NCBI GenBank assembly: GCA_024663395.1
Contig: JANFAH010000002.1
Span: 3,038,001 to 3,102,000, forward strand
Reading direction: 5' to 3'
Length of the DNA stretch: 64,000 nucleotides
Source of the DNA: Pisolithus tinctorius
Lineage: Eukaryota; Basidiomycota; Agaricomycetes; Boletales; Pisolithaceae
Shown here: piece after piece, positions 20,717 through 62,924 of the stretch
Position numbering within the stretch: position 1 is the stretch's first letter
Layout: each line of letters begins with the position of its first letter
Program-made: the position numbers and the translations under genes
Notes under the pieces: model-generated
Told to the model about the DNA's origin: nothing
Databases searched by the model: none
What the model saw: the letters and a program-made list of their open reading frames with translations, nothing else

Positions 20717-21145
20717 TTATGCCTGGAGTTCATCCGAGATGGCAACCGGCGATAGTCGCTTGTCTTGCGAATAGTTGGGTGTTGCTGGGTCGAAGGGGTG
20801 AGCTCTACTATCATCAGTATGTCGCGGGTCGGTCTGCTTACGGCTAGCGGACGGCGCGTTCTCTCGCACCTCTTCATGGACGTTGTTCTTCCACATCTCC
20901 CCTTCAGGCGACCTCCGCCTCATGGTTGACGCAACTGCATTCATTGGTTTTAATTCTCGATGGGCTGAATAGTGGTCTATTCGCTCACCTTCATCCATCC
21001 CCCGATGAACATCTTCGTGTAACGTGTCTTCTAGCAATCTTTGTTCAATGCCGACTTCGGCTGGTGCACGGGCGATTGGGGCACCAATTACGGGTGATGT
21101 GATGGTGGACAGGAGGACACAGACGCAGAACCAGGTAAGGCGCAT
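20717..21145 (-). CDS. Secreted precursor-like protein with one MWK motif (candidate RiPP precursor 1)
   Basis: Intronless frame of 142 residues beginning with a clear signal peptide (hydrophobic core CVCVLLSTITSPVIGA, cleavage likely near residue 22). The mature part is hydrophilic and charged, with no fold that I recognise. A tribasic RRR at residues 76-78 precedes SPEGEMWKNNVHEEV (residues 79-93). The MWKNNVHEE segment matches the five repeats of the gene at 24424-25188. This architecture is like fungal secreted precursors cut by Kex2 after dibasic sites. The gene lies about 6 kb from a UstYa-family oxidase. A role as precursor of a modified peptide is inference; an effector-like secreted protein is the alternative. 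Confidence 0.6.
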   Translation of the reverse strand: MRLTWFCVCVLLSTITSPVIGAPIARAPAEVGIEQRLLEDTLHEDVHRGMDEGERIDHYSAHRELKPMNAVASTMRRRSPEGEMWKNNVHEEVRENAPSASRKQTDPRHTDDSRAHPFDPATPNYSQDKRLSPVAISDELQA

Positions 21146-24423: not shown

Positions 24424-25188
24424 TTACTTCTTTCCGTCTTTGGACTCTTTGTGCACCTTGCTCTTCCACATAGCGCCAGCGCCAGCCATTACGCTATTAT
24501 CATCACTATCTCTCCGCTCGACCCCTTGAAATGATGAGTTGCCTGAGATGGCCGTTTAAATCCAAAATTCGGGAATATTAGCTAACCTCTCTTCTTTCCA
24601 CCAATAGATTCTTCATGTACCCTGTTCTTCCACATGCCGCCAGTTAGTGGCTCGAATCCCTCAGTGCGACCTCGAAATAGTGAGTTGGTTAGGATGTTTG
24701 TTCAAGTGTCGGTATTACACACCTCGCATGGCCTCTTCGTGCTCGCGGCCCTTCCACATGGCACCCCGAGCAGGAGCTGGCATCGGACTACGGGGTGCTT
24801 TATCCGTGTCCCCTTCGCGCCGCAGCCTCTGTGGCATGCTTTGGTTGTCTGTGCCTACCCACATCGCATCCTTAGCAGGAGACGGAGCCCTCCCCACTGC
24901 CACGATGCCACGATCCTCGGGTGCATTGGGCGTTGGAACTGGCTGTGGTACTGCTGAACGTTCATAGCCAACCACTTGGTGCTCGGTGCCCTCCCACATG
25001 AGTCCTCCAGGGGAAGTTCCCGGCGTGTTTATCGCCGACGTTGTACAGGGTGGTACTGTGAACTTTGTAAATGGCGGAGAAAAGGACAGTGAAGTATACT
25101 AACTGGAACGGACTACAGCTGCTCCGAGAATTGCTGGCATTTCGAAGATGAGGATGGTGCAAATCAATAACGAAGCTCTTGCGAACAT
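24424..25188 (-). CDS. Secreted repeat precursor with five MW motifs (candidate RiPP precursor 2)
   Basis: Predicted secreted protein of 206 residues from four exons: 25188..25104, 25055..24723, 24670..24587 and 24542..24424. All three introns are phase 1. Exon 1 is a signal peptide (LLICTILIFEMPAILGA). Five copies of a short motif follow: GLMWEGTEHQ (W49), DAMWVGTDNQ (W94), GAMWKGREHEE (W129), GGMWKNRVHEE (W153) and GAMWKSKVHKE (W193). Dibasic sites at LRR108, KKR167 and ERR178 and the terminal KK fit Kex2-type cutting. The last two exons each carry exactly one motif, suggesting growth by exon duplication. Met, Trp and the spacing to His are the most constant features. Next to a UstYa-family oxidase, this resembles dikaritin-type RiPP precursors, but no member with this core is known to me. 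Confidence 0.7.
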
Positions 25189-25905: not shown

Positions 25906-26214
25906 CTAGAGCCCATAGTATGGGTCTGGACGAGGCAAATCCCGAGTGTCAAGAAAAGTATGGCCTTTCAGATGCGGCTTCATAGCCCGTGCAGCGAGGA
26001 AAAGCTGCCGCATGGTAGCCAATAGGCACAGGGCATTTATGACAAGGAAAACGATTGACACCACACTGAGGCATCGTGGTGAGAAGAGGAGACTCCGCCG
26101 TTTAATATAGACGGGCTGGTCATCTCCAGGCTTGCTAAGGGAAGAATGCTGAATTTTCTCGACAAATGAATCGTCTTCAGCAACTTGGTTGAGGGGTGAG
26201 TATTCGTGGTTCAT
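25906..26214 (-). CDS. Small single-pass membrane protein with LPRPDPYYGL tail
   Basis: Intronless, 102 residues. A hydrophilic N-terminus is followed by a transmembrane helix around residues 50-72 (VVSIVFLVINALCLLATM), then an exposed stretch ending DTRDLPRPDPYYGL at the stop codon. No enzymatic motif is visible. The N-terminal layout (cytosolic head, one helix, short linker) is that of UstYa/DUF3328 proteins, but the catalytic HxxHC region is absent. It is divergently transcribed from the UstYa-family gene at 27190 and probably shares its control region. It could be an accessory subunit, a truncated relative, or itself a substrate with a Tyr-Tyr-Gly tail. I do not recognise a named family. 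Confidence 0.6.
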   Translation of the reverse strand: MNHEYSPLNQVAEDDSFVEKIQHSSLSKPGDDQPVYIKRRSLLFSPRCLSVVSIVFLVINALCLLATMRQLFLAARAMKPHLKGHTFLDTRDLPRPDPYYGL

Positions 26215-27189: not shown

Positions 27190-27883
27190 ATGCCCAGGCT
27201 GTATCACGAGTCGAGAAGCTGGCAGTTCCCACAAACGCCATACGTTTGCTTCATAGTCCTCTCTGTCATCACCTTGACCAATGTCGCCTTTACGCTGTAT
27301 AACATATCTCTCATCAACTCCTTCGCTCTCCAGACCCCAAGAGAGTATAGTAAGTACTTTTCCGGAATCTCTGTTATTCGATCTGATTTGTGCAGCCTGG
27401 ATGGGTGACGACCACCCTGCCCAACTTCCGATAGACCTGCCCGACGTCAGCCTTGTTCTCCAAGAAGGGCATGGTCATTTTGACCTCTGGGACGACGACG
27501 AGTGGGGTTCACTCTTCCCTTCCGATGGGTTCGCGCGAGTCGGTCCTCACAACCGCACGTTCGTCATCTCTCTCTACCACCAATTCCACTGTCTAGACGT
27601 CATCCGAGTTGGATTTCTCGTCAACCGAACGCACGCCGCCCAGCATATTCAGCACTGTTTGAGATATTTGAGACAAATACTATTGTGCCACGCCGATACG
27701 ACGCTCGAACCCGATATTCCGCAAATGGCGCCTGATGGGAGCTGGCATCACACGGCGAATGGCGTGGGCGCGGTGCACCGGTGTAAGGACTGGACAAAAT
27801 TGACGGATTTCATGCTGGAGAATCCGAGTTTACCAATCAACGAGGAGTACCAGGGGAATAATAGAATTGACACCAGTGGGTAA
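27190..27883 (+). CDS. UstYa-family oxidase (DUF3328)
   Basis: Predicted single-pass membrane enzyme of 215 residues. Exons 27190..27349 and 27396..27883 are joined across a 46-base intron (GTAAGT..GTGCAG). A transmembrane helix lies at about residues 18-40. The catalytic region has the family order: TWMGDDHPAQLP (54-65), an acidic EW segment, then HQFHC (115-119) and HIQHC (137-141), both HxxHC motifs, followed by LRQILLCHADTTLEP with Cys151. These are the hallmarks of UstYa proteins. Members in ustiloxin, phomopsin, asperipin and cyclochlorotine pathways carry out oxidative cyclisation or hydroxylation of peptides. All expected His/Cys residues are present, so the protein should be active. 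It lies about 2 kb from the repeat precursor, which makes that protein its likely substrate; this is inference. Confidence 0.92.
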
Positions 27884-60334: not shown

Positions 60335-61880
60335 GTCTAGTATTGTCTAGACCCATCTACCAGGGGCCAATATGCAAATTGGAGCGGTTGGTTTCATTGA
60401 AAGCATGATCACATGTACACTACTGTTAATACCGTCTGGATTGGATTTAACCTGCCTGCTGTTGCACGGATATCTTCACCTCTTGAGGCAGGCTGGCATT
60501 TCTTGGAGGTGAACAACCAGTTGTCAGTTCATGTGTGGTGCTGCGGGTCCTGGTGTCACATGTTTCTAGCATTGTAACAAAATCCCTCCGGTTGTCCGGG
60601 CGGCCTCATCTGCTACAGCGCCCAGAAAGTTACAGATGATGCCTCGATAGGTTGGCAACAGTGGTACCTACAACTTTAGAATAATGGTTTTTCTCCGCGT
60701 CTTGCTCCATACTTAGCACGCTGTTGCATAGAACTATGGCACCGTCAATGCTATTATGCACCACAAGTCGAAAAAAATCAGACCGGTTTATTTATCTTCA
60801 TGTCAACCTCCCGACACACTGGCCAAGGTGGACGACTGATAGTGTCGTGCTGCAGAAGTAAAGAGAGTATTCACAGCGGAACAGATCTCGAAATGACTAA
60901 ATATTTCATCACCAGTCTTAGTATACGTGAACCAAGGCGTTGCCATGATACTTACACTTCCACTGTTGCAGCGGGGCGCTGAATCATGTCCCCCATAGTG
61001 CGTTATAACTCTTCACATCGAGCGATGGCCACTTTGTATCCGATGGTAGGACGTGTTCTTGACCCAAACTACATTGATACACATTTGCAAGTTAAAGGTG
61101 GCCTGAATGACCGATGCACGCGAAGTGTAAGACTAAGACTGGGCTGGTATTTCCTTGACATTGATGCGGCTGAGTGGAAGAGCCATGCTGGGCGAGCGAT
61201 GTGGCCGCTGAGGCCCGTTGGCTCGGCGAGGCACAGGCGCATTGAGATAGTGATGCCCATACTTGCGGTTGGATGCAGTACGAGACAGCGACCGAAAAGA
61301 GTTGTATAGTCACACGTACAGATTACTTCGAAGCGCAAATATACCCAGATTCCGGTACGTTTCGGATTGTTTGGGCGTTCAGGTTATCGTAGTTATTGGT
61401 AGTGTAGACAAGGTACTCGAGAGAGGCACATCAGACAATGTAGGCAAGGACAAGTGGGGGGACCCATACAATTGGGCGTAGAAGGCGCCGAACCCCGGCG
61501 CCGTTGAAAGTTGGGCCGATGCACATGTGAGTGTAGATAGGGAAACAAACACTCCTGGTAACCTTGCGCACGCCTCCACCGAACGCGTCTTTCTTGATTG
61601 GGATATGTTGAAAGCTCACCTATTTTCCTGTGCTGTACTTTACCTTGCTGTTGCCTGCAGGTTTCGGTGAGGCTATTTTCGGGTTCGATGCCAATCCAAA
61701 TTGTTCCCATCCCAAACCCTCATCTACTCAGTTCTTCTGGCAAACACCCTCGACATCGTAGCCCTCCCGCATAGTACCACATCGCCTCGCGACCGTGGGG
61801 TTCAAGTGTTATCTTCAACTGTATGATTTTTGGTTTTGCAGGACGGACTCACTCACCAAATCACCAAATACGGGTACAGG
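60335..61880. other. Intergenic region, no gene seen
   Basis: About 1.5 kb. Frames of 60-107 codons occur on both strands without family features. A pyrimidine-rich GTTTTGCAG just before 61850 could be the acceptor of a 5' UTR intron of the HET gene. Confidence 0.4.
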
Positions 61881-62924
61881 ATGCGACTCATTGATGTTGC
61901 TGCTATACTCGACGTTGAAACGAGTATCAAAGAAGGGAAAGAATTTAGCGCTTCAACCCCAGTCCTCGAAGAGTTTTACGGCCCTGATCTTGCGGAGAAA
62001 AAATATGCTATTCTATCGCATTGTTGGGGTGTGGAAAAGCAGGGGGAGAAGGAGGTATCATATAAGGAGATGAAGAAGCTTTTGTTTATCGGTGAGGGAA
62101 AGAGGAAAGAAATCAGAGGGCGCACCGGTTACAAGAAGATAGTCGACACCTGCAAACAAGCACAGAAAGACGACTTAAAGTGGGCGTGGATCGACACTTG
62201 CTGCATTGATAAAACGAGCAGCTCCGAGTTATCAGAAGCAATCAACTCGATGTACCAGTGGTACGAAAACGCGACATCGTGTTATGTCTACCTCCACGAC
62301 ACTGCTGGGAACTCTTGGACGAATCGAAGGGACTCGCCAACCATTCCAAAGTGGTTTACGCGGGGCTGGACACTTCAAGAACTCGTCGCGCCCAAGGTTG
62401 TCCATTTCTTCGATCAGAGGTGGGAACCCATAGGCGACAGAACACAACTTGCAGACATTCTCAGCGAAATTACGAGAATCCCACAGCATATTTTGAAGAA
62501 TGAGCCGGATTTCGAGCGCCCTGGCGTCGCCCAGATTATGTCTTGGGCCGCCGACCGCACGACAACACGAGAGGAGGACCGAGCATATTCGCTACTGGGT
62601 CTGCTCGGGGTGCACATGCCGCTGCTGTACGGGGAGGGGAAGAACGCATTTCGACGTTTGCAGCTGGAAATCATTCGCACGTCTAACCCAAGCACCTTGA
62701 CCGTGGTGGAAGACCCGAGTTCCTTCAGGGATTGTGATCAGGTCTGGTTGTCGAGTCCCAGTGGGGTTGTCAAAGAAAACATGATCCCGTTCCCTGGAGA
62801 GGAGCCCTGCGAATTTGCAGAGGAGGAACCTCGTGTTCGTACATTCATGATGACTAATTTTTTTTTTTTTTTTTGGCTGCGATCGGTCGTGGGAGTCGGG
62901 AGGGAGGCTTGCTTATATAATTAA
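61881..62924 (+). CDS. HET-domain protein, short C-terminus
   Basis: Heterokaryon-incompatibility (HET) domain protein, 347 residues in one exon. HET proteins act in non-self recognition and cell death; the domain is TIR-like. It starts MRLIDVAAILDVE, the usual start of basidiomycete HET proteins. Conserved blocks are YAILSHCWG, the VDTCKQAQKDDLKWAWIDTC block ending in CID, SEAINSMYQWYENATSCYVY, FTRGWTLQELVAP and DRAYSLLGLLGVHMPLLYGE. After the domain ends (FRRLQLEIIRTSN) only about 70 residues follow. The frame then crosses a 17-base T tract (62858-62874), encoding a Phe run just before the stop codon. Many relatives carry NACHT/WD or ankyrin regions here, so the 3' part may be lost, or a spliced continuation missed. 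Confidence 0.85.
   Translation: MRLIDVAAILDVETSIKEGKEFSASTPVLEEFYGPDLAEKKYAILSHCWGVEKQGEKEVSYKEMKKLLFIGEGKRKEIRGRTGYKKIVDTCKQAQKDDLKWAWIDTCCIDKTSSSELSEAINSMYQWYENATSCYVYLHDTAGNSWTNRRDSPTIPKWFTRGWTLQELVAPKVVHFFDQRWEPIGDRTQLADILSEITRIPQHILKNEPDFERPGVAQIMSWAADRTTTREEDRAYSLLGLLGVHMPLLYGEGKNAFRRLQLEIIRTSNPSTLTVVEDPSSFRDCDQVWLSSPSGVVKENMIPFPGEEPCEFAEEEPRVRTFMMTNFFFFFWLRSVVGVGREACLYN
62858..62874. repeat. Poly-T tract inside the 3' end of the HET frame
   Basis: Seventeen consecutive T residues lie within the annotated HET reading frame, 50 bases before its stop codon. Slippage here would change the frame end. Confidence 0.85.

What the first reader, a model, noticed from the sequence alone, without database searches (positions are those of the whole stretch)
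24424..25188. Secreted precursor with five Trp-His repeat cores and Kex2-type sites
After a signal peptide, the protein repeats a short motif built around M-W-K-x-x-x-H-E-E five times, and dibasic sites (LRR, KKR, ERR, terminal KK) separate several copies. Seen in the sequence: repeats, signal peptide and cleavage-like sites. Known: ascomycete dikaritin precursors such as UstA have this layout and are modified by UstYa-type oxidases, one of which lies 2 kb away. Inferred: this is a basidiomycete RiPP precursor with a Met-Trp/His core that I do not recognise as any described product.
Basis: partly seen in the sequence, partly recalled or inferred. Interest (0 to 1): 0.9.

Follow-up and report, generated by a model that had tools for sequence, protein, structure and literature searches.

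The report
Mushroom peptide precursors beside copper oxidase
A relative of the root-associated mushroom Pisolithus carries two small secreted-type proteins with a tryptophan-histidine motif beside a gene for a copper-type peptide-modifying enzyme, which suggests an undescribed kind of modified peptide.

Summary
The minus-strand gene 25188-24424 (four exons, 200 aa) has a signal-like start, five M-W cores and the claimed dibasic sites. Core 2 carries Asn instead of His and is decaying in relatives; only 2 of the 4 intervals between cores hold a dibasic site. A 96% identical database protein has the same length and joins.

Beyond the finding: a second precursor (21145-20717) has one core, GEMWKNNVHEEV, invariant in 5 of 5 rows, window included. 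MWKxxxHEE occurs 3 times in the 92.5-Mb genome, all here. The only UstYa (PF11807) gene found in that genome starts 2 kb from the precursor, with both HxxHC motifs. Relatives point to Pisolithus or a near genus. A Pisolithus microcarpus DUF3328 gene is published as induced in ectomycorrhiza; orthology is untested.

Best reading: a two-precursor, one-oxidase RiPP locus that works like a dikaritin pathway. By the Tyr-ether definition it fails (no Tyr in the window's six cores); by the enzyme-based definition it passes. A Trp- or Trp-His-directed reaction is the bold, untested inference.

The parts
24424..25188 (-). Precursor A: exons 25188-25104, 25055-24723, 24670-24587, 24524-24424; 200 aa
   Evidence: Splice model; P0001 96% identical, same length and joins; single place in the genome
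24973..24999 (-). Core 1 MWEGTEHQV
   Evidence: MWKGYEHEV-type with Tyr in 4 of 7 rows
24838..24864 (-). Core 2 MWVGTDNQS, Asn for His, decaying in relatives
24733..24759 (-). Core 3 MWKGREHEE
   Evidence: GAMWKGREHEEA 10 of 12 columns invariant in 7 rows
24609..24635 (-). Core 4 MWKNRVHEE, alone in exon 3
24445..24471 (-). Core 5 MWKSKVHKE, alone in exon 4
24817..24825 (-). LRR, candidate Kex2-type site between cores 2 and 3
   Evidence: RLRR invariant in 7 of 7 rows
24588..24596 (-). KKR, candidate Kex2-type site after core 4
   Evidence: KRR in P0004
24511..24516 (-). RR of ERR, candidate Kex2-type site before core 5
   Evidence: also in P0001 and P0004
24427..24432 (-). KK, last two residues of precursor A
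20717..21145 (-). Precursor B: exons 21145-20989, 20934-20842, 20784-20717; 105 aa
   Evidence: 101 of 105 residues as in P0007; relatives; single place in the genome
20870..20896 (-). Core of precursor B, MWKNNVHEE
   Evidence: GEMWKNNVHEEV invariant in 5 of 5 rows
20912..20920 (-). RRR before the core of precursor B; only its last R is invariant in the 5 rows
20756..20761 (-). KR after the core of precursor B, candidate Kex2-type site
   Evidence: invariant in 5 of 5 rows
27190..27883 (+). UstYa-family (DUF3328, PF11807) gene: exons 27190-27349 and 27396-27883; 215 aa; hydrophobic segment from residue 19
   Evidence: only PF11807 match found in the genome
27578..27592 (+). First HxxHC motif, HQFHC
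27644..27658 (+). Second HxxHC motif, HIQHC

Best explanation
A compact RiPP locus of about 7.2 kb with two secreted-type precursors (A with five M-W cores, B with one) and one UstYa-family oxidase. Proposed route: both precursors enter the secretory pathway by their hydrophobic N-termini (sequence feature only). The membrane-anchored UstYa oxidises the cores in the lumen with its two-HxxHC copper site (inferred). Kex2-type proteases cut at RLRR, KKR, ERR and, in B, KR, releasing blocks with one or two cores that are trimmed further (inferred). As the window's cores hold Trp and, in five of six, His but no Tyr, the likeliest target is the Trp, perhaps joined to the His five residues on (inferred). 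The product would be a secreted oxidised MWKxxxHEE peptide, possibly used in contact with a host root (speculative). Shown: gene models by homology, motif, co-location, no further copies found, intact copper motifs. Not shown: any processing, chemistry or role.
For: Motif far above shuffled and Markov controls. Second precursor 3.3 kb away sharing the core; P0001 and P0009, relatives of A and B, align only around the cores. Core of B invariant in 5 of 5 rows, core 3 of A in 10 of 12 columns of 7 rows. MWKxxxHEE found 3 times in 92.5 Mb, all here, reversed control 0. UstYa found once in the genome, head-to-head with A, with both HxxHC motifs, described as the binuclear copper site of DUF3328 enzymes (PMC12435403, abstract and passages). 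Proprotein-convertase P domain present in the genome. DUF3328 genes lie near 1758 of 7878 fungal KEP genes and 103 of 1680 in Basidiomycota (PMC7329392, passages).
Against: No product, no transcript, no test that this UstYa acts on these precursors. The UstYa has relatives across Agaricomycetes (73 hits), while the precursor searches named only Pisolithus among their sources, so the oxidase may have another substrate; those searches need shared 5-residue words and could miss short fast-evolving genes. Only 2 of 4 intervals between cores hold dibasic sites. Core 2 is decaying. Trp is not enriched in KEPs near DUF3328 genes, 20.5% with and 24.5% without (PMC7329392, passages). Tyr is not wholly absent: it is in core 1 of 4 of 7 rows of A and invariant near the C-terminal KR of B, so Tyr chemistry there is not excluded.
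Confidence: 0.65

Rival explanations
1. Linear KEP: the precursors are cut by Kex2-type proteases into unmodified secreted peptides, and the neighbouring UstYa acts on something else.
For: KEP-derived peptides detected in Agaricomycetes are described as linear and minimally modified (PMC9769878, abstract). Only 6.1% of basidiomycete KEPs lie near DUF3328 genes, and that survey suggests cyclisation may hardly occur there (PMC7329392, passages). UstYa relatives are widespread without a detected precursor.
Against: The only UstYa found in the genome and both precursors lie within 7.2 kb.
Confidence: 0.2
2. A true dikaritin with Tyr-ether chemistry on Tyr residues outside or in core 1, the Trp-His motif serving as recognition sequence.
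For: Tyr in core 1 of 4 of 7 rows of A; Tyr invariant near the C-terminal KR of B; one Tyr in the window's A at residue 59.
Against: P0001 has no Tyr in its 200 aa; no Tyr in cores 2-5 of any row that has them, nor in the core of B.
Confidence: 0.05
3. Intact secreted repeat proteins, for instance effector-like or metal-binding proteins using the Trp and His of the repeats, with basic runs not used as cleavage sites.
For: Basic runs do not bracket each core; no Pfam match for either precursor.
Against: RLRR invariant in 7 rows and KR in 5; linkers rich in Pro, Gly and charged residues; UstYa neighbour.
Confidence: 0.08
4. Chance reading frame or dead gene.
For: Core 2 is decaying and some database models stop after exon 2.
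Against: Relatives at 55-96% identity, GT-AG joins that restore one frame, motif controls.
Confidence: 0.02

Closest known systems
Dikaritins (ustiloxin, phomopsin, asperipin-2a) with UstYa-family oxidases
   Same: Secreted multi-core precursor with Kex2-type sites beside a DUF3328 gene with two HxxHC motifs
   Different: Basidiomycete; cores built on Trp and His with no Tyr in the window's cores; two precursors that share only the core; no tyrosinase among the neighbouring ORFs given to Pfam
KEPs (Kex2-processed repeat proteins) of Agaricomycetes
   Same: Signal-like N-terminus, repeated short motif, dibasic sites
   Different: Dibasic sites in only 2 of 4 intervals between cores; UstYa 2 kb away, which the survey found for 6.1% of basidiomycete KEPs
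W-containing KEP type P-3 (Fonsecaea, Cladophialophora, Galerina, Psilocybe, Coprinellus)
   Same: Trp in the repeat and a DUF3328 gene near 4 of 7 members (PMC7329392, passages)
   Different: Repeat described as W accompanied by P; its sequence was not seen, and no Pisolithus is listed, so relatedness is untested
Moroidin-type burpitides of plants
   Same: Multi-core precursor; copper enzyme with four His; Trp-His crosslink (PMC11253845, passages). Likeness of the DUF3328 and BURP four-His sites is noted in PMC12435403 (passages)
   Different: BURP-domain enzyme; core QLLVWRGH with Trp and His three residues apart against five here; here a Trp-His bond is only a proposal

Membership tests
Dikaritin | Ether crosslink from a Tyr in the core (definition as in PMC11253845) | tested here: not met
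   No Tyr in the window's six cores; Tyr in core 1 of 4 of 7 rows and near the C-terminal KR of B. The bond itself cannot be tested here.
Dikaritin | DUF3328 protein as class-defining enzyme, with two HxxHC motifs (definition reported in PMC12048977) | tested here: met
   PF11807 64.5 bits against a cut-off of 25; HQFHC and HIQHC. That it acts on these precursors is untested.
Dikaritin | Repetitive secreted multi-core precursor | tested here: met
   Five cores in A; secretion rests on hydropathy alone.
[quoted passage not shown]
   Dibasic sites in 2 of 4 intervals between cores; repeats diverged.
KEP | ER signal peptide | tested here: inconclusive
   Hydropathy peaks 2.43 (A) and 2.16 (B) near the N-terminus; no predictor available.
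KEP | Release of core peptides by Kex2 | not testable with these tools
   A P domain of proprotein convertases is in the genome; cleavage needs peptidomics.
UstYa family (PF11807) | Curated profile score and two HxxHC motifs | tested here: met
   both motifs here and in 57 of 60 aligned relatives, the 60 being part of 73 hits.
UstYa family (PF11807) | Copper- and dioxygen-dependent activity | not testable with these tools
   Described for CctR (PMC12435403); no solved structure matched by sequence; our structure job did not finish.
Moroidin-type burpitide | Core with Trp and His three residues apart, Leu three before the Trp | tested here: not met
   Trp and His five apart in the window's Trp-His cores; spacing of moroidin from PMC11253845.
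Moroidin-type burpitide | BURP-domain cyclase | not tested
   The genome was not searched for BURP; the neighbouring ORFs given to Pfam showed none.

The most novel reading that the evidence does not exclude
The locus makes a Trp-centred crosslinked peptide: the UstYa copper enzyme joins the Trp indole to the His five residues on (or otherwise oxidises the Trp) in MWKxxxHEE cores of two separate precursors. It would be a fungal counterpart, by a different copper enzyme, of the Trp-His bond of plant moroidins, and used by an ectomycorrhizal fungus at the root.
Probability: 0.2. Interest if true: 0.85.

Novelty: new variant of a known kind. Interest (0 to 1): 0.58.

Why it matters
Basidiomycete KEP genes near DUF3328 genes have been counted in a survey (103 of 1680), but the passages I saw on fungal KEPs and RiPPs describe no characterised UstYa-made basidiomycete peptide. 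This locus looks nearly minimal (two precursors, one oxidase, no further copies found), so it is a clean test of whether UstYa enzymes modify Trp or His. If the ectomycorrhiza-induced DUF3328 gene of P. microcarpus is its orthologue, it also gives a symbiosis-linked peptide to look for.

Tried and rejected
Chance frame: rejected by relatives and controls. Further copies in the genome: single-protein searches with P0001, P0007, P0015 and the 102-aa ORF, and two patterns, found nothing outside this locus. The pattern also demanded a Gly/Ala codon before the core and recovered 2 of the 3 sites. STE13-type dipeptide ladders before cores 3 and 5: read by eye, out of register, dropped. UstYa among solved structures by sequence: 0 matches. 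Viral-contig scans for UstYa and precursor B: none confirmed. Tree of 33 of the 73 UstYa hits: query, Scleroderma citrinum and P0019 together (100/100), 13 of 30 inner branches open; used only for placing the genome. UstYa structure prediction: accepted, not finished in 16 polls, so no model and no fold search. NCBIfam gave nothing over a cut-off for P0001, P0007, P0011 or the 102-aa ORF. The output was cut; I used only its rows for the two precursors.

Full report
Observation. The gene lies on the minus strand. Exons 25188-25104, 25055-24723, 24670-24587 and 24524-24424, over GT-AG introns of 48, 52 and 62 nt, give 200 aa. Five M-W cores start at residues 48, 93, 128, 152 and 186; basic runs lie at 107-108, 165-167, 171-172 and 199-200. 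All 5 Trp of residues 23-200 are in the motif. Of 200,000 shuffles, 412 had one match and none had more; the window in six frames has 6 matches against a mean of 0.15 (maximum 1) in 60 order-2 Markov sequences.

Corrections. Core 2 (MWVGTDNQ) has Asn where the other four have His. In relatives it reads VWAGSQNQ, VWAGLENQ or MQEGTGNQ, and it is missing from P0006. Of the four intervals between cores, two (2/3 and 4/5) hold a dibasic site. The protein would thus be cut into blocks with two, two and one core.

Relatives of precursor A. Six proteins passed E <= 1 among 892 candidates: three from unnamed contigs, two from Pisolithus croceorrhizus, one from Pisolithus sp. B1. P0001 is 200 aa, 96% identical, with the same joins; P0004 runs through exons 2-4. 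P0002, P0003 and P0005 end at exon 2, as reading into intron 2 would give; P0006 ends early in the exon-3 part. So two of six relatives support the full five-core joins. Core 3 with its flanks is invariant in 10 of 12 columns, and RLRR is invariant, in 7 rows. The closest pair is not most alike in its cores: the window and P0001 differ twice within core 5.

A second precursor. The ORF at 20717-21145 resolves into three exons and 105 aa, 101 of them as in P0007. Four relatives passed E <= 1 among 27 candidates, named ones from Pisolithus marmoratus and Pisolithus sp. B1. In 5 rows (window and four relatives) GEMWKNNVHEEV, a downstream KR, a Tyr four residues before that KR, and an upstream TLHEDVHRG are invariant; of the RRR before the core only the last R is. 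P0001 and P0009 align only around the cores. In Pisolithus sp. B1 the relatives of A and B are listed with the same longest-contig length, 1,816,102, and the two A relatives of P. croceorrhizus with 491,754: a hint of linkage, not a mapping.

The oxidase. The UstYa gene 27190-27883 (plus strand, starting 2.0 kb from precursor A and pointing away from it) encodes 215 aa in two exons, 214 of 215 as in P0011. Its second-exon frame scores 64.5 bits to PF11807, cut-off 25. It has a hydrophobic segment from residue 19 and two HxxHC motifs, as do 57 of the 60 proteins I aligned out of 73 hits. DUF3328 enzymes are described as binuclear-copper, dioxygen-dependent enzymes using this motif (PMC12435403, abstract and passages).

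The whole genome. In 92.5 Mb and 221 contigs PF11807 gave 1 match, and a Rhizopogon UstYa found only this gene, as two exons. P0001, P0007 and the 102-aa ORF between A and UstYa found only their own places. MWKxxxHEE as a DNA pattern gave 3 matches, all in this window, and 0 for the reversed control. These searches score best candidates only, so absence is not proof. A proprotein-convertase P domain occurs at two places. The nearest named relatives are Pisolithus for the precursors and Scleroderma citrinum for the oxidase; Pisolithus belongs to Sclerodermatineae, Boletales. The species is not known.

Interpretation. Co-location of genes for which no further copy was found, conserved cores and basic sites, and an intact copper motif make a UstYa-type RiPP locus the best reading (0.65). 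Two definitions of dikaritins are in print in what I saw: a Tyr-ether bond (PMC11253845, passages) and the DUF3328 enzyme (PMC12048977, passages). The locus fails the first, as far as cores can tell, and passes the second. Tyr is absent from the six cores of the window, and P0001 has none in its whole length; but core 1 holds Tyr in 4 of 7 rows and B has a conserved Tyr near its C-terminal KR, so Tyr chemistry is not excluded for every precursor. The Trp-His idea rests on the fixed spacing of W and H and on the plant precedent of moroidin. Against it, Trp is not enriched in KEPs near DUF3328 genes (20.5% with, 24.5% without; PMC7329392, passages). UstYa relatives occur across Agaricomycetes, and Pleurotus ostreatus is reported to have 16 UstYa-like genes (PMC8893723, passages), so the family alone does not predict this precursor.

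Role. In P. microcarpus a DUF3328 protein (171565) is listed among genes raised in ectomycorrhiza: 21 to 82, 57 to 188 and 30 to 92 in three strains that form it, 14 to 21 in the strain that does not (PMC12409109, section 18 part 1 and passages). Genes also raised in that fourth strain were left out of the table by its authors, so the contrast is partly by selection. This genome shows one DUF3328 gene, which makes orthology plausible; I could not test it, and the passages I saw name no precursor.

What is in print. All ten paper searches: (6 papers; 1; 14; 0; 2; 3; 17; 2; 0) and 71 (5, 4 listed). I saw abstracts or passages of 11 papers and only listings of the others. None of those passages describes this core or this locus. 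The supplementary tables of the KEP surveys could not be opened, so a listing of this gene there is not excluded. RiPP-like clusters are already predicted in another bolete, Phlebopus portentosus (PMC12411881, passages).

Noticed in passing
25906-26214 (-): Intact 102-aa ORF between precursor A and UstYa, single hydrophobic segment (peak 2.92 from residue 51), ending DLPRPDPYYGL; no Pfam or NCBIfam match, one place in the genome. It could belong to the locus. I recall, from no call, an agaricomycete membrane-protein family with an LPRPDxYxGL stretch.
   Followed up: partly
20999-21025 (-), precursor B TLHEDVHRG: Second block invariant in 5 of 5 rows, outside the core; by eye it resembles the core without Trp, so it may be an old core or a recognition sequence.
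   Followed up: partly
24424-24670 (-): Cores 4 and 5 each sit in their own exon, all three introns of precursor A are in phase 1, and exon 3 is 84 nt (from the exon bounds): a layout that would let cores multiply by exon duplication.
   Followed up: no
24671-24722 (-), intron 2 of precursor A: Reading into intron 2 ends the protein at once after core 3 (AMRGV and stop); P0002, P0003 and P0005 end at this point, so a three-core form may be real in some species.
   Followed up: partly
G000 contigs C5 (1121287-1121589) and C74 (213493-213795): Two matches to the proprotein-convertase P domain with the same score, perhaps alleles or a recent copy.
   Followed up: no
61827-62924 (+): HET-domain (heterokaryon incompatibility) gene, PF06985 at E 3.5e-12.
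   Followed up: no
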